Shown here piece after piece: positions 1,294-29,141 of a stretch of 32,989 nt of DNA. The DNA is from Gammaproteobacteria bacterium. Lineage in GTDB: Bacteria > Pseudomonadota > Gammaproteobacteria > Pseudomonadales > Azotimanducaceae. The first letter of the stretch is position 1, and every line of letters begins with the position of its first letter. The stretch spans positions 1 to 32,989 of the forward strand of contig VXSY01000141.1 of assembly GCA_009837725.1 (NCBI GenBank). The letters are read 5' to 3'. The position numbers and the translations under genes are program-made. Below the pieces are notes generated by a model, which had not been told where the DNA came from, did no database searches, and saw nothing but the letters and a program-made list of their open reading frames with translations.

Positions 1294-4200
1294 CTAGGCG
1301 AAACCGTAGAGCTTGGCCACCGCTTGGTCGAGCGCCTCCTCCAAACCTACCACATCCGCATCGGCGGCTGCCGCCAAAGCGTCCAAGATGTCATCAACGA
1401 GCTTCACAATACGTTCTTGTTTGTCGGTCGCTACGTCCGGGATTGGCAGGGGTTTCCAGTCGTCGGGAAAGATGTGGAGGTTGCTACGACGGTGTGCCTG
1501 AAGGTAATCCTGAGCGCTCGAAGAATTCATGATGCCCAAGACATACTTCACTAGAAATCTGCGGCTGATCTTCTCCAGTTGGCGCCGGTCAGGCCGAAGA
1601 GTTCCACCTCTCTCGCCCGGATATCGAGCCTGCTTACGGATAGCGCGGTTTCGGACGTCGGCAAGGGCGGGCCAAGGCACAAAGCACCAAACGGAGTGGT
1701 TGTGGTAGGTCTGATTGTGGTCATATGTTACTCTCGGCCGGCTTTCGCTGGCCGACATGTCGACCGATAGGACCTTCTCGGGAACCTCATACATCTCCGA
1801 GAATGTGGGCCGGCTGAAAAACGTGGGTGCCCTTTCCGTGCCCCACTCTAGCCATTCATTTTGCGTCAATGTCCAACGGGACAGGTGTTTCCCTTGCACG
1901 AATCTCCGTGGATGCACTTTGTCGCGGCTTGTCGAGACCAAATCCTTGAGCTTGAAGCTCGTTTCGCTTTTGGTCTCATGTGCATGAACGGCCATGCCCT
2001 TCGAGATGTAGAAGATAGACGAAAGCTCAACGGTTGGCACGTTGGAGCGGCGATACTCGCCCGACTCCGGGAAAAAGCATCGTTCATCCAGTGCATTTTG
2101 CGGGGCACTCGGAAGCTCTTTAACCTGCCCGAAGCTCCCCTCATGCGCTCGTCGAAGGGGCGTGTTTTCAGCACCTGCCCCTCGCCGAACGACATAGGAA
2201 ACATTATGTACGGCGGCATCGAAGATCTTGATCTTGCCGTAGAAGTCAATTCTTTCTACAACCGCATTTCGGAGATACCAATCACGAGCCTTTAGTGCGT
2301 ATTTTGCATGACAGAAGGCATCCGAGACGATGAGGCTACTAACGCCGTTCTCCCGTAACAGTTGGAGGCTACGCTCCATAAAAGCGAGAAAGAGATCCCA
2401 CTTCTCCCAAAGTGTCTCATACGCACCGCTTTCAGCAACCAGTTGCCTAGACTCCTGATGCTTGGGGTGTCGAAAGTCCGCACGAACGTACGGCGGGTTA
2501 CCAATAGTAACGTCGAAGCCCTGCCGGATGTCAAACATGTAGCGCGGGTCGAACCACCCAACCGTTGCGTTCTGGTCGTAGGGGTCCCACTCCGAAACGC
2601 GTTCGGCATCCTCAGAAGCCAAACCACCGCGCTTAAGCTCATGCGTCAGGTCGTTGCGGATTCGGGTATCCGCATCCATTGCATCCAGCTTTTGCTGGCG
2701 GGTACGAGCGTGGAAGTAGCGTTCCCGGTTCGCTTGCAGTTCTCGCTGTAGGGCGTTCGAGGCGGATGTTCCAAGTCGCAGCTCGCCGGAAAGTGGAAGC
2801 AGGGTGTTCGCCGCAACGAAGCGAGTCTCCAGGTTGGGAAGGGGCTTGATTCCTAGGTTGTCCTCCGAGACTGCGACCCGCTGCTCGATCGCAAGCGAAA
2901 TGAAGAACCGGAGCTTGGCGATTTGGCAAGCGACCGGTTGAATGTCGACACCGAAGATGCTGTTCTGGATCAGGAAGAGCTTGCGACCGAAGTCAGAGCC
3001 CCTATAGCGCTCGAACGTGGCGCTGATTTCCGTGAGCTCCGCGTCCCGGGCCCCTTGGTCGTGGGTGTCGAAGGCTGCTGCCGCCCGTTCCTGCGCAAGT
3101 TCCTTCTGCAGCCGTTCCCACCTCTCGTTGGCAGGATCAAGCCGGCGGAGCGCGAGCGTGAGTTTGTGCAGGATACCCATTGGAAAGGCACCGGACCCGC
3201 AAGCGGGATCAAGCACCTTCAAGTCAGCGATCGCACGGATCACTCCGTCGGTTTCGGACTCTTCGAAGAGGTCGCTTGCGTCACCGAAGGCATCCTCGTA
3301 ATCGAGCAGGTAGTGGAGCCGGTCGCGCCAGAAGGCTTGGTCTCCATCAGCCGGTTGTGCCTTGAGGGCAAGGCTTGCCACCAAGGCTTCGTCCGCCATG
3401 TAGTCCACCACCGGTCGCGGTGTGTAGTAGGAGCCGGTCTGCTTGCGAGCGGTTTCTCTAGTCTCTGGGTTGTACGCGGCCAACAGGTTCTCGAACACTC
3501 GACCGAGGAGTTCGGGGTCGAGAGCCACTTCCACTTCCGCTGGCGTGTTCTCCTCCACCGTGAACTTGTAGCGGTTGAACAGCGTGATGAGCCCCTCCTC
3601 GTCGTCGAAAAAGAGTCGGTTTGGAATCGATACGATGCCGTACTCTTTGGCCCGCTTTTCTGTCACGTTGTCCGAAAAGCAGTCGATGCGATAGCCCCCT
3701 TGGGAAAGGGATTCCACGCTGTCCAGACAATCGAACAGGCCGCCATTGATGAAGGGTGTGCGTGCGAAGAGCTCAAGCAGGGCATCGGGGTCCTCGATCT
3801 CCTTACGGTAGCGGTATCGGTCGAAGAGGCGGTGCGTCGATTGGCGTCGCTGACTCCAGCCACGCAGGTCAACCTCGCAGTTGAGCGTTGCGAAGAATAG
3901 GTTTTGCAGGATGGCGCGGTAGTACGAGTCACCCTCCGCCCTGTCGTAGCCCTTGAGCAGTTGGCCGACCTGTTCCTCGATGAACAGGTCGTCGGCAATC
4001 AGCTTCTTCTCCTTGATGAACCAGACGAACAACAGGCGGGTGATCAGCCGAATGACATGTTCTTCCGACGAAAGCGTGCGACGTTGCCCCGTGGGGAACG
4101 TTGCCTCCTCGACGGCGCGATTGAACCACCCGAAAAGGTCGCGATAGAACCGCTTGTTGAGTTCCTGGGTATCCAGGGTGTCAAGGAGGGCCGCCAGCAA

Positions 4201-4875
4201 ACCGTCAAAGTTGGTCGGCTTGGCATGGGTGTCCATCCAGGCGAGACGGCTCGGCAGGGAAAGTTCAGCCAAGATGTCCTGATGAGCCCGGTGGGGCTTG
4301 GAGGGGTCGATCTCGCGGATGAGCGCGACATTGCCTAGTACCTGGCGCCTGCCGTCTCTCTTGTGCTTGCGCCGGTGCACGAAGGCGAGCGTGAGCGAGC
4401 CACCCTCGGCACGGAAGAGCACGAATGCTGGCATGGCGAACCGCTTGTTTATCTCCCTCGCGAAACCGGCGTAGTCAGTGCGCGAGTAGCTCGTTCCGCT
4501 GAGTTCAATAGCAAGGAAGACGAAGCTCTTCTGCAGACCATCTTTGAAACCAGTTTCAGCGAGCAAGGAGCCTTGGTGCTGGTCCCTGATTTCCTCGTCG
4601 GACACTTGGAACACGATGTGCGCCGACGTCGCGCTGGCGCGGAACGCCTCCTCAGATTGCGTCTGCGTAGAACGTGCGTTGTCCTTAGGCGGTAGTTGTG
4701 CCAGGAAGTCATCGACATCGCCGGTTTGGTTCGCCAAGGTTAGTTCACTCGCATAGCCCAAGCAGCGTAGCAGCGACTCTGCGGCTTCGGCGAACGGGCG
4801 TTCCACTCCGGCCTTAAGCGCCTCTCGGATGGTGGCTGTCGTGTCGTCTGCCCGATGCGTCGCGTTGGCTCGCAT
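1294..4875 (-). CDS. Eco57I-type adenine-specific DNA methyltransferase, large (1193 aa)
   Basis: Probable N6-adenine DNA methyltransferase of a restriction/defence system. SAM-binding motif I (LDPACGSGAFPMG) is near residues 553-565 and the catalytic NPPY motif (IGNPPYV) near 792-797; the order I then IV is that of the gamma/Eco57I class. The roughly 550-residue N-terminal region precedes the methylase core, and the last 350 residues probably hold target recognition. No PD-(D/E)XK nuclease motif could be assigned, so it may modify only. The start ATG lies 6 bases after the stop of the PLD-SNF2 helicase gene, whose last codons supply an aaaggg ribosome-binding site, so the two are an operon. 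Sequence appears intact. PglX of BREX is similar in size, but no other BREX gene is present here. Confidence 0.85.
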   Translation of the reverse strand: MRANATHRADDTTATIREALKAGVERPFAEAAESLLRCLGYASELTLANQTGDVDDFLAQLPPKDNARSTQTQSEEAFRASATSAHIVFQVSDEEIRDQHQGSLLAETGFKDGLQKSFVFLAIELSGTSYSRTDYAGFAREINKRFAMPAFVLFRAEGGSLTLAFVHRRKHKRDGRRQVLGNVALIREIDPSKPHRAHQDILAELSLPSRLAWMDTHAKPTNFDGLLAALLDTLDTQELNKRFYRDLFGWFNRAVEEATFPTGQRRTLSSEEHVIRLITRLLFVWFIKEKKLIADDLFIEEQVGQLLKGYDRAEGDSYYRAILQNLFFATLNCEVDLRGWSQRRQSTHRLFDRYRYRKEIEDPDALLELFARTPFINGGLFDCLDSVESLSQGGYRIDCFSDNVTEKRAKEYGIVSIPNRLFFDDEEGLITLFNRYKFTVEENTPAEVEVALDPELLGRVFENLLAAYNPETRETARKQTGSYYTPRPVVDYMADEALVASLALKAQPADGDQAFWRDRLHYLLDYEDAFGDASDLFEESETDGVIRAIADLKVLDPACGSGAFPMGILHKLTLALRRLDPANERWERLQKELAQERAAAAFDTHDQGARDAELTEISATFERYRGSDFGRKLFLIQNSIFGVDIQPVACQIAKLRFFISLAIEQRVAVSEDNLGIKPLPNLETRFVAANTLLPLSGELRLGTSASNALQRELQANRERYFHARTRQQKLDAMDADTRIRNDLTHELKRGGLASEDAERVSEWDPYDQNATVGWFDPRYMFDIRQGFDVTIGNPPYVRADFRHPKHQESRQLVAESGAYETLWEKWDLFLAFMERSLQLLRENGVSSLIVSDAFCHAKYALKARDWYLRNAVVERIDFYGKIKIFDAAVHNVSYVVRRGAGAENTPLRRAHEGSFGQVKELPSAPQNALDERCFFPESGEYRRSNVPTVELSSIFYISKGMAVHAHETKSETSFKLKDLVSTSRDKVHPRRFVQGKHLSRWTLTQNEWLEWGTERAPTFFSRPTFSEMYEVPEKVLSVDMSASESRPRVTYDHNQTYHNHSVWCFVPWPALADVRNRAIRKQARYPGERGGTLRPDRRQLEKISRRFLVKYVLGIMNSSSAQDYLQAHRRSNLHIFPDDWKPLPIPDVATDKQERIVKLVDDILDALAAAADADVVGLEEALDQAVAKLYGFA

Positions 4876-4881
4876 CTGGTA

Positions 4882-7800
4882 CTACCCTTTTGCTGCGAGG
4901 ATCGCGAGCCAAGTCACCAACTCGTACTCCGAGTCGTCCTGGGTGGGCTGGTCGCTAGCCTTCGGAAGCCGGCCGTCAGGCTTGGCGAGCTGCGCCACGG
5001 CCTGCCTGCCGAAGGTTCGGGCGATGCTCTGCAGCCCAGCTTGGATCAAGGTGTCGTAATGGTCCATGTCTGAGCCTTGCTTGGTCCGTTGATCGAAGAG
5101 GTCGCATAGGTCGTTGTGCGCCGCCTCGATGCCTGCCGCGAGATCTCGCAATAGACTCAACGATCGCTTCGCGGACGTGAAACCGAGGCGGACGTCGCCG
5201 TCGTCCCTGACGTAGATCAGGTAGTGCTTGCCGAGCGGGTTGACCCACGCCGAATCGTCGCCGTCGCGGCGGCTTGTCGTGGCGTCATCTCCCGACCCGG
5301 TGTGGCGCAGGCAGAAAATGGCGCCGGGCTGCGCCATGGAGTTGCTCGAAACGGGCGGCACCACCGCGTACAGGCCCAGGTCGGCCGCTTCAAGTTCCTC
5401 CCGGCGAGATTCAAGAAAGCGCAGCAGGTCGATGCGGAACTCGTCCAGCGAAAAGTCCGCCAAGCTGATGGTGTCATCGAGGTCGTCCAGATCAACCACT
5501 TGGTCCTTGAGCCGAACCAGTTGCCGGTCGCGGAACTGCAGCTCTTGCTGAATCTGTTCCGTGGCTTGCGCATCCTCCAGCAGGTTGTCGCCGCCAGTTG
5601 CGGTTACGTCAACCAGCGCCATGCGCGCCTCGACCCGGTTTTGCACATTCAAGTACCGATCCAGATCCTTGACAGGCCAGAAGTTCACCAACCGAACGGC
5701 ACGGCTGTGCGAACTGATGCGGTCGATGCGCCCAAAGCGCTGGATGATTCGCACGGGGTTCCAGTGGATGTCGTAGTTGATGAGCAGGTCGCAGTCTTGC
5801 AGGTTCTGGCCTTCGGAGATGCAGTCGGTGGCGATGAGAACATCGATTTCCTTGGAGGGCTCCGCGCCCGCACGATCTGCTCGGTGCTTCGAGATTGGGC
5901 TAAAGTTGGTGAGAATGTCGTCGAACCCCGTCCGACCGAAGGATGTCTTGTTGCGGCCGTCGCCGCGAACCAAGGCGATCTCTGAACCTGCCGCCCTGGC
6001 CTTGCCCTGCAGGTTTTCGTACAGGTAGTCCGCCGTGTCCGCAAACGCCGTAAAGACGAGAGTCTTGCGGTTTCTACGGTTTTCCTTCGTCTTCGTCGGT
6101 TCTTCAAGTTTGGAGGCGATGCGACTCCAAAGATCCGAGAGCTTAGCGTCTCGCTTCGGCGACACGGCCTCAGCCTCCGCAAGTAACGCCTTGAGCGCGA
6201 CCCCATCCGTGTCGAGCAGCTCACGCCATTTGGGGACATCGATGTGGCCGAGATGGAAGCGGCGCTTGCCGCCGATGGCGAAATCGCCGTCGTCATCTTC
6301 CGGATCGTCCATGTCGTCCAAGGCGACCTCGTTGTACTCAACCTCGGGGTTCGCTTGCTGGTGCTCTGCAAAGGCATCCATCCGTTCCAGCAGATGGTCG
6401 ATTTTGGCCAATGTGCGGGTGAGCGTCAGGCGAAACGACTCGACCGAACTCTCAAGCCGCTTCAAGAGATTGACCTTCATCATGCCGATGAGGATGCGTT
6501 CGCGCCCCGCTTGCGTGAACCCGTTCACCACCTCCTTCTCGTACTCGGCCTTGACCTCATCGGCAAGGTCTTTGCGCAAATAGCCGGCAGGGTTGTACAA
6601 GGCCAGCGAGAGTCGGTTGATGCGTTCGTCGAGCCTCTCGAAGGAGAAATCACCGTTCTTTAGGTCCATGGCGGGATAGACGGCTTCCGGCTTTGCTCGT
6701 TTCGGGAAGCCGCCGAGCCTTTCCATCTCCTTCGCGTAATGTCGCCGGATGTGGGTCCGTGAGCGGGCGATGCTCAAGCCATCCAAGAGCCTGAAGAAGT
6801 CGCCCCCGATGTCCTCGAGCAAAGTCGCCACCTTGCGTTTGCTCGCCGGTGACTTCGACCAAGCATCGAACTTCCGCTGGGCCGCGTGAATCGTCTGCTG
6901 AACCGAGGAGAGGCCAAGCGGTACCTTGAATGCGGCATCGGCCGCAGACTCCAGGGTGACATCGCCCCCGCCGATGAAGGAAATCTGATTCCGCAGGTCA
7001 CGAAGGTCGTTGTTGACAGGCGTTGCCGACAGAAGCAGCACCTTGGTCTTGATGCCGTGCTTGACGATGTCCTCGATCAGCCTTTGGTAGCGGGACTTCC
7101 TGGCGGGTTCGCCTTCTACTTGGCGCGCTCGGTTGTTGTTCCGAAAATTGTGGGACTCGTCGATCACCACGAGGTCGTAATTGCCCCAGTTGATCGTGGC
7201 GAGGTCAATGTCCCCGGTCATGCCCCCATCGCGGGAGAGGTCTGTGTGGGATAGGACGTCGTAACGAAATCGGTCCTCCAAGAACGGGTTGAGCTTGCTG
7301 TTGTTGCCGTAGATCGTCCAGTTGAAACGCAGCTTCTTGGGGCAGAGCACCAGCACCCGTTCGTTCTTGAGCTCGAAGTACTTGATCACGGCCAATGCCG
7401 TGTAGGTTTTGCCAAGGCCCACGCTGTCGGCCAGGATGCAACCGTTGAGGGCTCGCATCTTGGCGATGATCGCTCTAGCACCGTCCCTTTGGAACTCGTA
7501 AAGCGTCCGCCAAATGTGGGTTTCCGGCAAAGCCATACCACTGACTTCAGCATCGGTGTCTTTCTGCCCGTCCAGCAGGTCGCGGAAAAGATGGAACAAC
7601 GTGAGGTAGTAGATGAACTCCGGCGGCTGGTTGGCGTAGAGGCTCGCAAGCTGATCGAGCACATCTTGCTTCACGTCTTCCGTGCGCTCGTCGTCTCGCC
7701 ACCATTCGTCGAACCACGCCAAGAGGTCTTCTCGGTCGCGGGAACTGTCAACCACGAGGTTCAGTTCTACGTTCGGATTCACGCCCAGCCCCAATCCGGG

Positions 7801-8355
7801 CACCGTAAAGTTCGAACTACCGAGCAACGCGTGGTCCTCGTCTCGGCGCAGGTGGTAGAGCTTGCCGTGGACGAAGCCACCCTTGACGGAGCGAATCTCG
7901 GCCTTGCCCTCTATCCATGCGGCACACTGACGAGCCAACGCGCTTTGTGCGAGCTGATTCGCCAGCGTCAGGCCTTGCTCTGTGAGCCGAAACGCTTTCG
8001 ATTCCAGATCGTCCCGCCGCATCCTACCCACCAACTCGGGGGCCCCGTAGAGGAAGCGCATTCCTTCGATCTGCTCAAGTTCGTCCCGCAATGCGCCGTA
8101 GGCGCTGATGGTGAAGTACCCGGACACGACGGAGAGGCGGGTGTGCGGGTACAGGTGGGACTTGAGGAAACTGCCGGCCGTGCCGCGCTCCCGATTGTCG
8201 CGAATGCCGGACCGAAGTTGCGGTGCGGCAGTTGTGGGCGCAACCGGAGCGGATTGGCCGGTTCGCTTCCGGTTACGGGCTCGTTTGTTGGCGGAGGATG
8301 GCTTTGGCATACGGCGAATGCGAACGTCGGCCTTGAAGAACGACGTGCGAATCAT
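4882..8355 (-). CDS. PLD-family nuclease fused to SNF2 helicase/translocase (1157 aa)
   Basis: Likely restriction/translocation partner of the adjacent methyltransferase. After a basic N-terminal tail there is a phospholipase-D-like domain at about residues 60-215, with an HxK motif (HGKLYHLRRDEDHALLGSSNF, H163/K165) typical of PLD nucleases. The SNF2 ATPase follows: Walker A in LADSVGLGKT (308-317), DESH Walker B (399-402), and the C-terminal helicase lobe with TDCISEGQNLQ and RIIQRFGRIDRI near residues 830-880. PLD plus SNF2 in one chain beside an Eco57I methylase recurs in DNA-modification-based defence loci, so nuclease-coupled translocation on foreign DNA is the inference. An internal ATG at codon 16 (MPKPSS) is an alternative start. 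It is divergent from hemH with a 105-base gap. Confidence 0.85.
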   Translation of the reverse strand: MIRTSFFKADVRIRRMPKPSSANKRARNRKRTGQSAPVAPTTAAPQLRSGIRDNRERGTAGSFLKSHLYPHTRLSVVSGYFTISAYGALRDELEQIEGMRFLYGAPELVGRMRRDDLESKAFRLTEQGLTLANQLAQSALARQCAAWIEGKAEIRSVKGGFVHGKLYHLRRDEDHALLGSSNFTVPGLGLGVNPNVELNLVVDSSRDREDLLAWFDEWWRDDERTEDVKQDVLDQLASLYANQPPEFIYYLTLFHLFRDLLDGQKDTDAEVSGMALPETHIWRTLYEFQRDGARAIIAKMRALNGCILADSVGLGKTYTALAVIKYFELKNERVLVLCPKKLRFNWTIYGNNSKLNPFLEDRFRYDVLSHTDLSRDGGMTGDIDLATINWGNYDLVVIDESHNFRNNNRARQVEGEPARKSRYQRLIEDIVKHGIKTKVLLLSATPVNNDLRDLRNQISFIGGGDVTLESAADAAFKVPLGLSSVQQTIHAAQRKFDAWSKSPASKRKVATLLEDIGGDFFRLLDGLSIARSRTHIRRHYAKEMERLGGFPKRAKPEAVYPAMDLKNGDFSFERLDERINRLSLALYNPAGYLRKDLADEVKAEYEKEVVNGFTQAGRERILIGMMKVNLLKRLESSVESFRLTLTRTLAKIDHLLERMDAFAEHQQANPEVEYNEVALDDMDDPEDDDGDFAIGGKRRFHLGHIDVPKWRELLDTDGVALKALLAEAEAVSPKRDAKLSDLWSRIASKLEEPTKTKENRRNRKTLVFTAFADTADYLYENLQGKARAAGSEIALVRGDGRNKTSFGRTGFDDILTNFSPISKHRADRAGAEPSKEIDVLIATDCISEGQNLQDCDLLINYDIHWNPVRIIQRFGRIDRISSHSRAVRLVNFWPVKDLDRYLNVQNRVEARMALVDVTATGGDNLLEDAQATEQIQQELQFRDRQLVRLKDQVVDLDDLDDTISLADFSLDEFRIDLLRFLESRREELEAADLGLYAVVPPVSSNSMAQPGAIFCLRHTGSGDDATTSRRDGDDSAWVNPLGKHYLIYVRDDGDVRLGFTSAKRSLSLLRDLAAGIEAAHNDLCDLFDQRTKQGSDMDHYDTLIQAGLQSIARTFGRQAVAQLAKPDGRLPKASDQPTQDDSEYELVTWLAILAAKG

Positions 8356-8460
8356 ATCAATGGCTGCTCGTGCGCCCTTGCGGGCGCGTTGGCGGTTCGC
8401 TGCGCGAACTGTTGGCTTTCGTGCCTACAATCACCCTCCCGCCCCGACACGGGTTGCGCG

Positions 8461-9474
8461 TTGACCACTCGCGGCATTCTCCTTGCCAATCTCGGTTCCC
8501 CCGCTGCGCCCGAACGCGACGCGGTGCGCCGCTATCTGAACGAGTTTCTGATGGACCGGCACGTCATCGACGCGCCTTGGCCGCTGCGGCGGACAATCGT
8601 GTCGTTGATACTTCGGCAGCGGCCCGAGGCGAGTGCGAAGGCATACGGAGCGATCTGGCGTGACGAGGAGCCGGGATCGCCATTGCTGCATTGGAGCGAA
8701 CGGCTTGCCGATGCGCTTCGGCAGCGTGTCAACATCCCGGTGGCTCTGGGGATGCGGTACGGGGCTCCCAGCCTAGAAGACGCCCTCAAGGCTCTGACGG
8801 CCGCATCGGTGGATGAAATCCTGCTCATGCCGCTCTATCCGCAACACGCCGGTGCCACCCGGAGCACGACGATCGAACGCGCGAGGACCCTCGCCGACCG
8901 CCGCAAGCTCCTCGTCCTGCCGGCCTTCTACGACCGACCGGAATACCTCCAAGTCATGCGCGACTTACTGTCGCAAGAGCTACCCAACGACGCCGACCAT
9001 CTGCTCTTCAGCTACCACGGCCTGCCCGAGCGCCAAATCCGCAAGGCCGACCCCACACGAGAGCACTGCCTACAACGCCCAGACTGCTGCGAGGCGCCCT
9101 CCTCCGCACACGCAGGCTGCTATCGACATCAGTGTTTGGCGACCACCAGGCGGCTCGCCGCCGGCCTCACGATCCCCCACAGCACGAGCTTCCAGTCCCG
9201 CCTGGGGCGCCTGCGCTGGCTCACGCCCTACACGGAGGAACACCTCGGCGAACTCGCGGGGGCCGGCGTGCGCCACGTCGCGGTCGCCTGCCCGTCCTTC
9301 GTTGCCGACAACCTCGAAACCCTCGAGGAACTCGGCATAAAGGGAGAAGCGGTCTTTCGCGAAGCCGGTGGCCACCGCCTGACCCTCATCCCCTGCGTGA
9401 ACGACCGCACTGACTGGGCAGACGCCTTGGCGAAATGGACCACGCTGCCCCGCGAGGAGCTCGACCTGACATGA
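8461..9474 (+). CDS. hemH: Ferrochelatase
   Basis: Inserts Fe2+ into protoporphyrin IX in the last step of protoheme synthesis. The start is taken as TTG at 8461, because the family begins with GILLANLGSP-like sequence at once and no ATG or GTG fits. The catalytic His is H186 in FSYHGLPER, and the C-terminal PYTEEHL...CPSFVADNLETLEEL region carries the second catalytic acidic site. Between them is an insertion with five cysteines (C203, C209, C210, C220, C225: HCLQRPDCC...GCYRHQC). This resembles ferrochelatases with an internal [2Fe-2S] cluster. Length of 337 residues is normal. Its TGA overlaps the ATG of the next gene (ATGA at 9471), so it heads a tight operon. Confidence 0.93.
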   Translation: MTTRGILLANLGSPAAPERDAVRRYLNEFLMDRHVIDAPWPLRRTIVSLILRQRPEASAKAYGAIWRDEEPGSPLLHWSERLADALRQRVNIPVALGMRYGAPSLEDALKALTAASVDEILLMPLYPQHAGATRSTTIERARTLADRRKLLVLPAFYDRPEYLQVMRDLLSQELPNDADHLLFSYHGLPERQIRKADPTREHCLQRPDCCEAPSSAHAGCYRHQCLATTRRLAAGLTIPHSTSFQSRLGRLRWLTPYTEEHLGELAGAGVRHVAVACPSFVADNLETLEELGIKGEAVFREAGGHRLTLIPCVNDRTDWADALAKWTTLPREELDLT

Positions 9475-10232
9475 CTTTGGCCCTCGCCGCGGGAATCCTC
9501 TTCGCCGTTCTGGCGACATCCATCCTCTCCGGCATCCTTGGAATGGCCGGCGGCGTCATCCTGATGGCGGTTCTTGTCGCCACGCTTTCTGTGTCCGGGG
9601 CGATGGTGCTGCATGGCGCCGTGCAGGCGGCGTCGAACGGCGCTCGGTTCGTGTTCCTCCGGCAGCACATGATGTGGTCGGTGGTGCCGCCGTACATCGC
9701 CGGCGCGGCGTTGGTTGTCATCCTGTTCTCGCTCGCCGCGTTCGTCCCCGACCCCGCCGTGGTGCTGGTGCTCGTCGGCACGCTGCCATGGCTCGCCCGC
9801 ATCCTGCCGAAGACCGGCAAGCTCGACGTGCGCCAGCCGGTCACCGCCATGTGCTGCGGCAGCGTCGTCACCGGTGCCCAGCTCCTCGCCGGTGCCTCCG
9901 GCCCCCTGCTCGACGCCTTCTACGTCAATACGCCAGTGGATCGATTCCGCATCGTCGCCACCAAGGCGTTTACGCAAACCCTCGGTCACACGGTCAAGCT
10001 CGCCTACTACGCCACGCTCGGCGGTCTCGCATGGGGTGAGGCGTCGGCAGGGGCTGTACCCATCTGGATCATCCTCGCCGGTATGGCAACCGCCGTCGTA
10101 GGCGCCCGCATCGGCACCAGGTTCCTCGCCCGCTTTGAGGACAACCAGTTCCGCCGCGTTTCCGGGTGGGTGATCCTCGCACTCGCCACGTTGTGTATCG
10201 TCGGCGGGCTGCGCCAGATCATCGGAAACTGA
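9471..10232 (+). CDS. TSUP (TauE/SafE) family membrane permease
   Basis: Integral membrane protein of 253 residues with about eight hydrophobic segments, in the two-repeat arrangement of the TSUP family. The N-terminal SGILGMAGGVILMAVL segment and a second Gly-rich segment after residue 120 (CGSVVTGAQLLAGASGPLLDAF) are the family's paired motifs. TSUP proteins move small sulfur compounds or organic anions such as sulfite, sulfoacetate or taurine; the substrate here cannot be read from sequence. The start is set by the ATGA overlap with hemH, and the next gene begins 3 bases after its stop, so all are probably cotranscribed. Confidence 0.88.
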   Translation: MTLALAAGILFAVLATSILSGILGMAGGVILMAVLVATLSVSGAMVLHGAVQAASNGARFVFLRQHMMWSVVPPYIAGAALVVILFSLAAFVPDPAVVLVLVGTLPWLARILPKTGKLDVRQPVTAMCCGSVVTGAQLLAGASGPLLDAFYVNTPVDRFRIVATKAFTQTLGHTVKLAYYATLGGLAWGEASAGAVPIWIILAGMATAVVGARIGTRFLARFEDNQFRRVSGWVILALATLCIVGGLRQIIGN

Positions 10233-14746: not shown

Positions 14747-14996
14747 CGCCGCCTCCCCGCCATGCTCGCCTTTCTCTGAAGGGAGGGCATCTTGCCCTCC
14801 ACCGCGCCGCAGGGTGCGTCAGAGGCGAACATGCACATTTGCTAGCCTCAAGGACGTTTTTGTCTTCAAGCCCGCCATCGTGATCCAGTCGCCCCAAAAA
14901 ACTGCGCGCCTGACGGCGCGTTGGAGGGCAAGATGCCCTCCCTCCGGAGGTCACGCTTCGCCTCAACGTTGGAGGGCAAGATGCCCTCCCTCCAGG
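14747..14996. repeat. Repeat cluster splitting dctQ and dctM
   Basis: This 250-base gap inside the TRAP operon holds three copies of the palindrome ggagggcaagatgccctcc: 14782-14800 inverted with a variant outer base, 14922-14945 and 14970-14993. Between them is a shorter gcgcgcctgacggcgcg hairpin near 14905. A further copy occurs at 29029-29052. Copies are followed by the same ccctcc tail, so these look like mobile palindromic (REP/MITE-like) units inserted in the operon. No gene is recognised. Confidence 0.75.
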
Positions 14997-28945: not shown

Positions 28946-29028
28946 TCCCGTTCCCTCTCCCATCGCCAATGTGCAGCGAGAGCGTAACGCATCACACGTC
29001 ACCCACCGGAACGCGCCTATCGGCGCTT

Positions 29029-29052
29029 TGGAGGGCAAGATGCCCTCCCTCC
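29029..29052 (+). repeat. ggagggcaagatgccctcc palindrome
   Basis: Fourth copy of the palindrome seen three times between dctQ and dctM, with the same ccctcc tail. It lies between the divergent LLM and dehydratase genes. Confidence 0.7.
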
Positions 29053-29141
29053 AGAAATGACGGTTGCGAAGGAAGCAACGGCCAAGCGTGACCGCACCGG
29101 TACACAATAGGGTTCCCTACTCGGAGCAACTGGCCACCGCC

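What the first reader, a model, noticed from the sequence alone, without database searches (positions are those of the whole stretch)
8461..9474. Ferrochelatase with a five-cysteine insertion
C203, C209, C210, C220 and C225 follow the catalytic His within 40 residues, suggesting an internal [2Fe-2S] cluster of the kind reported in some bacterial ferrochelatases, an unusual cofactor for this enzyme. It also uses a TTG start.
Basis: partly seen in the sequence, partly recalled or inferred. Interest (0 to 1): 0.35.

Follow-up and report, generated by a model that had tools for sequence, protein, structure and literature searches.

The report
Ordinary bacterial ferrochelatase with iron-sulfur loop
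This is a normal heme-making enzyme (ferrochelatase) carrying a 22-residue cysteine loop that very probably holds a small iron-sulfur cluster, a variant already described in many bacteria.

Summary
Of 140 aligned ferrochelatases, the 86 with a CC pair in the insertion all keep C203, C209, C210 and C220; the 54 without the insertion lack all four. C225 is in 53 of those 54 and in an E. coli ferrochelatase, but in only 54 of the 86. Predicted [2Fe-2S] ligands are therefore C203/C209/C210/C220; C225 is a core cysteine. This is the published internal-insertion [2Fe-2S] class (PMC8529089; Myxococcus xanthus characterised). With the insertion removed, the two types fall on either side of one branch. 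The genome has one ferrochelatase plus HemF and HemJ, and no ChdC match: a protoporphyrin-type pathway. Both close relatives share the TTG start. No spectroscopy or measured geometry: the cluster is inferred. Ordinary; new member of a known kind.

The parts
8461..9474 (+). hemH, ferrochelatase, 337 aa, TTG start
   Evidence: PF00762 294 bits, TIGR00109 215.6 bits over its cut-off; TTG at the same codon in L001 and L002
9016..9018 (+). catalytic His186 (SYHGLP)
   Evidence: H in 140 of 140 aligned rows
9055..9120 (+). internal 22-residue insertion, about residues 199-220
   Evidence: 23 residues between D197 and Y221 in 78 of 86 insertion-type rows (22-27 in all 86), 1 residue in 54 of 54 others
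9067..9069 (+). C203, predicted [2Fe-2S] ligand 1
   Evidence: C in 86 of 86 insertion-type rows; gap in 54 of 54 others
9085..9090 (+). C209 and C210, predicted [2Fe-2S] ligands 2 and 3 (adjacent CC)
   Evidence: C in 80 of 80 nearest relatives; the 86 rows were defined by this pair; adjacent Cys stated to be ligands in PMC8529089 section 6
9118..9120 (+). C220, predicted [2Fe-2S] ligand 4
   Evidence: C in 86 of 86 insertion-type rows; gap in 54 of 54 others
9133..9135 (+). C225, core cysteine, predicted not a ligand
   Evidence: C in 53 of 54 rows without the insertion and in E. coli, but in only 54 of 86 insertion-type rows
9316..9318 (+). conserved Glu286, aligned with the catalytic Glu of human ferrochelatase (E343; role and numbering recalled)
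   Evidence: E in 140 of 140 rows; alignment to human chain 2qd3_A
8425..8460 (+). hemH upstream stretch shared with close relatives (TACAATCAC...)
   Evidence: similarity to L001 begins at window 8425 and to L002 at 8423

Best explanation
A catalytic protoporphyrin IX ferrochelatase (HemH) of the internal-insertion [2Fe-2S] class. It inserts Fe2+ into protoporphyrin using His186 and Glu286. A 22-residue loop inserted between D197 and Y221 holds a [2Fe-2S] cluster on C203, C209, C210 and C220; C225 is a core-helix cysteine and not a ligand. The cluster most likely sits near the active-site pocket as a structural or redox-responsive accessory that is not needed for the chemistry, as reported for cluster-free variants of characterised bacterial relatives. 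Shown here: family, conserved catalytic residues, insertion, invariance of the four Cys among insertion types, pathway genes. Inferred: presence, type, place and role of the cluster.
For: PF00762 and hemH models; single ferrochelatase in its genome; C203/C209/C210/C220 in 80 of 80 nearest relatives and in 86 of 86 rows with the CC pair, absent in 54 of 54 others; C225 in 53 of 54 without the insertion and in E. coli; same pattern in a Caballeronia and a Pseudomonas ferrochelatase; published internal class with 22-34 residue insertion and CC pair as ligands; Cys-to-Ser variants of characterised bacterial enzymes complement an E. coli knockout (PMC8529089, passages); one branch separates the two types with the insertion removed; model with mean pLDDT 93.9, closest to human ferrochelatase; HemF and HemJ present, ChdC not found.
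Against: No spectroscopy. The characterised M. xanthus and P. syringae sequences were not at hand for a direct alignment. Four invariant cysteines would also suit a zinc site. The 80 relatives were picked by similarity to the query, so they lean to the same type, and the class set was ranked by the Pfam score, which leans to the plain type.
Confidence: 0.9

Rival explanations
1. The four invariant cysteines bind a structural Zn2+ ion rather than a [2Fe-2S] cluster.
For: Sequence alone cannot tell four-Cys zinc from [2Fe-2S] sites; the loop is modelled with good confidence, which suits either.
Against: The M. xanthus member of the internal-insertion class is stated to hold a confirmed [2Fe-2S] cluster (PMC8529089), with the same kind of insertion and CC pair.
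Confidence: 0.05
2. C225 is one of the ligands, or swaps with one of them.
For: It lies five residues after C220 and is C in 54 of 86 insertion-type rows.
Against: It is another residue (mostly V) in the other 32, it is C in 53 of 54 enzymes without the insertion, and it lies in the core helix 221-233 of the model.
Confidence: 0.04
3. The cluster was lost and the loop is a relic.
For: A ferrochelatase with the insertion but a partial motif is reported for Porphyromonas gingivalis (PMC8529089).
Against: All four cysteines are intact here and in 80 of 80 nearest relatives.
Confidence: 0.01

Closest known systems
Internal-insertion [2Fe-2S] ferrochelatases (type member Myxococcus xanthus; PMC8529089, which cites Shepherd et al. 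2006)
   Same: Insertion of 22-34 residues in the core with C-x(n)-CC-x(n)-C; catalytic His kept; insertion types group together in the tree
   Different: Nothing essential seen. One further nearby cysteine, C225, which plain gammaproteobacterial enzymes have too
C-terminal-motif [2Fe-2S] ferrochelatases (human, Caulobacter crescentus, Actinobacteria; PMC8529089)
   Same: Same catalytic core; cluster thought to lie in a similar place
   Different: There three ligands are in a C-terminal extension (for human); here all four predicted ligands are in the internal loop
Plain gammaproteobacterial ferrochelatases (E. coli type)
   Same: Core, His186, Glu286 and C225
   Different: No insertion and none of the four ligand cysteines

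Membership tests
Ferrochelatase (HemH) | Family profile over its cut-off, full length | tested here: met
   PF00762 294 bits, residues 4-326; TIGR00109 215.6 bits against 124.6
Ferrochelatase (HemH) | Catalytic His and Glu | tested here: met
   H186 and E286 in 140 of 140 rows
Internal-insertion [2Fe-2S] ferrochelatase | Internal insertion of 22-34 residues | tested here: met
   22 residues longer than plain enzymes between D197 and Y221; range
Internal-insertion [2Fe-2S] ferrochelatase | CX(1,11)CX(1,11)C with a CC pair in the insertion | tested here: met
   C203-x5-C209-C210-x9-C220
Internal-insertion [2Fe-2S] ferrochelatase | Groups with other insertion types in a tree of the core | tested here: met
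   49 insertion rows and 54 others split by one branch, SH-aLRT 100, quick method
Internal-insertion [2Fe-2S] ferrochelatase | Bound [2Fe-2S] cluster by spectroscopy | not testable with these tools
   needs purified protein
Internal-insertion [2Fe-2S] ferrochelatase | Cysteines align one by one with the ligands of the M. xanthus enzyme | not tested
   that sequence was not at hand, and the 2006 paper was not held
Protoporphyrin-dependent pathway enzyme | Genome has HemF and a protoporphyrinogen oxidase (HemJ) and no ChdC | tested here: met
   HemF 333 bits, HemJ 172 bits, ChdC no match in a genome 95.83% complete

The most novel reading that the evidence does not exclude
C225 next to the cluster serves as a spare ligand or disulfide partner, making the loop a redox switch that tunes iron insertion in those insertion-type enzymes that keep it (54 of 86 rows).
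Probability: 0.03. Interest if true: 0.5.

Novelty: new member of a known kind. Interest (0 to 1): 0.08.

Why it matters
The function of the [2Fe-2S] cluster in bacterial ferrochelatases was still open in 2021 (PMC8529089, discussion). This gene adds one more member and allows a clean assignment of ligands against a core cysteine; it does not itself answer the question.

Tried and rejected
Considered and rejected: chance clustering of cysteines (four are C in 80 of 80 nearest relatives); five ligands (C225 fails); coproporphyrin-dependent enzyme (no ChdC match, HemF and HemJ present); HemY-type oxidase (11 weak matches, none over the cut-off); another start (TTG is shared by L001 and L002).

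Led nowhere: the model coordinates were not found in the Python box, so no sulfur distances; three literature searches gave one paper directly on the topic, and one review of which I saw only passages and which added little on bacterial enzymes. My first extraction of relatives by a sequence pattern missed 17 of 80 loci; it was redone by tblastn on all 80. A spacing count was blurred by a further Cys upstream of C203 in 18 of 86 rows and could not be read in one row with unknown residues, so only the aligned columns are used.

Limits of the sets: the 80 relatives are the best of 404 and lean to the query's type. The 30 class loci are the best by Pfam score of 131 matching genomes among 143 searched, own genome included; the window itself ranks low on that list, so this choice leans to plain types, and the share of insertion types in the class cannot be read from it. 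The 29 order loci are from 29 of 52 other matching genomes (56 searched, own included); the remaining 23 were not read. The tree used 103 of 140 rows; 37 insertion-type rows, mostly near-duplicates, were dropped by hand. The structure was predicted from the window protein and 49 of the 80 relatives, chosen by hand. L081 and L112 (the window's own gene) were left out of counts. In one search four relatives (L008, L012, L015, L033) were flagged with a stop inside the matched stretch; they were read from the open frame around the middle, and the flag was not looked into further.

Full report
What is there. Window 8461-9474 on the + strand is an open frame for a 337-residue protein beginning with TTG. 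It is ferrochelatase, HemH: PF00762 at 294 bits over residues 4-326 and TIGR00109 hemH at 215.6 bits, above its cut-off. It is the only ferrochelatase found in the window's genome of 4.66 Mb in 303 contigs.

The start. The same frame stays open upstream to 7489, so the start rests on comparison. Both relatives at about 90% identity, L001 and L002, have TTG at the same codon. Of five further relatives printed, L004 and L005 have ATG at that codon, L007 and L008 have ATG one codon later, and L003 has ATC there. TTG 8461 is therefore the likely start and not remarkable.

The cysteines. I aligned the window protein with 80 relatives (the best of 404), 30 ferrochelatases of the same class (the best by Pfam score of 131 genomes with a match among 143 searched) and 29 from the same order (29 of 52 other genomes with a match), 140 rows in all. 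Eighty-six rows carry the CC pair; all 86 have C203, C209, C210 and C220. The other 54 lack the stretch altogether: between the columns of D197 and Y221 they have one residue, against 22-27 (23 in 78 of 86) in the insertion type. So the insertion is about 22 residues and holds four, not five, cysteines. In the set of 80 relatives alone, which was not defined by the CC pair, all four are C in 80 of 80, while C225 is C in 52 of 80.

C225 behaves differently. It is C in 53 of 54 rows without the insertion and in an E. coli ferrochelatase from a named plasmid record, but only in 54 of 86 insertion-type rows, where V (22 rows) is the commonest replacement. In the predicted structure it lies in the core helix 221-233, outside the loop. 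It is best read as an inherited core cysteine, not part of the cluster motif.

What it matches. Weerth, Medlock and Dailey 2021 (PMC8529089; I read the abstract, sections 6 and 8, the first of two parts of the discussion and passages found by term) describe two kinds of [2Fe-2S] ferrochelatase: C-terminal, and an internal insertion of 22-34 residues commonly with a CC pair, both adjacent cysteines being ligands. M. xanthus (internal) and P. syringae are among the eight characterised enzymes; the text I saw does not say which kind P. syringae is, but places gammaproteobacterial motifs in the insertion. They count the motif in 89 of 482 sequences, with insertion types in Beta-, Delta- and Gammaproteobacteria, Oligoflexia, Bacteroidetes, Verrucomicrobia, Chlamydiae and Ignavibacteriae. 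The window protein meets each sequence feature of the internal class that I could test. The same pattern is seen here in a Pseudomonas relative (L058) and a Caballeronia one. The primary 2006 paper was not held.

Descent. A tree of the core, with the insertion columns taken out, on 103 of the 140 rows (37 insertion-type rows, mostly near-duplicates, dropped by hand), puts the 49 insertion types on one side of one branch and the 54 others on the other, SH-aLRT 100 (quick method). Of the 29 order genomes read, 5 have the insertion and 24 do not. So both types occur in one order, and the insertion types, Verrucomicrobia included, group together rather than with plain enzymes of the same order. 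This agrees with the single clade of insertion types in the paper. Whether transfer or loss made the pattern was not tested.

Structure. AlphaFold2 on the window protein with 49 of the relatives gives mean pLDDT 93.9 and pTM 0.91; the ten-residue blocks from 191 to 220 have means of 89, 89 and 91. Residues 197-214 show no regular secondary structure, and 215-218 a short helix. The closest solved structures are human ferrochelatase chains, TM about 0.8 by query length.

Pathway. The genome has HemF (333 bits) and HemJ (172 bits) and no match to the ChdC family, at 95.83% completeness. HemY matches are all below the cut-off. This fits the protoporphyrin-dependent route with iron insertion as the last step. 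HemF is an oxygen-dependent enzyme (recalled), which fits the reported link of the motif with aerobic life.

How it most likely works. Ferrous iron is inserted into protoporphyrin IX with His186 and Glu286, both in 140 of 140 rows; their roles are established knowledge of the family, not tested here. The loop holds a [2Fe-2S] cluster on C203, C209, C210 and C220. In characterised bacterial enzymes, loss of the cluster leaves activity (stated in PMC8529089), so the cluster is more likely a structural or redox-responsive accessory than part of the chemistry. The role is an inference; the paper says that the function is undetermined.

Surroundings. Similarity with L001 and L002 stops at window 8425 and 8423. 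In L002 the genes upstream of hemH are a class-I glutamine amidotransferase gene (likely hisH) and a histidine biosynthesis gene (likely hisF), running the other way; L001 shares the first 703 bases of what it holds of that region, at 89% identity, which reaches the amidotransferase gene only. In the window a two-gene restriction or defence cassette stands there instead, and the closest match to the L002 histidine gene lies on another contig, C131, at 98% identity. This has no visible bearing on the enzyme.

Verdict. The finding is real and correctly read in outline, corrected from five to four cysteines, and of a class already described in print (PMC8529089).

Noticed in passing
1294-8355 (-), junction at 8423-8425: A type IIG-like restriction-methylase (1193 aa) and a PLD plus Snf2 helicase (1157 aa; best PADLOC match HKD+Snf2, also DrmD-like) lie directly upstream of hemH, where the relative L002 has amidotransferase and histidine-biosynthesis genes; similarity ends some 36 bases before the TTG start.
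   Followed up: partly
14774-14818, 14905-14949, 14967-14995; also about 29013-29053: Short repeats around GGAGGGCAAGATGCCCTCC, direct and inverted, also present once in L002 at 240-280: a dispersed repeat of unknown kind.
   Followed up: partly
9435-10232 (+): A TauE/SafE-type membrane protein frame overlaps the 3' end of hemH; its listed ATG is at 9435, and an in-frame ATG at 9471 overlaps the hemH stop codon, so the two may be translated together (inference).
   Followed up: no
L113-L141 (order-level sample): Insertion and plain ferrochelatases occur side by side within one order (5 and 24 of the 29 read), suggesting replacement or old transfer of hemH.
   Followed up: partly
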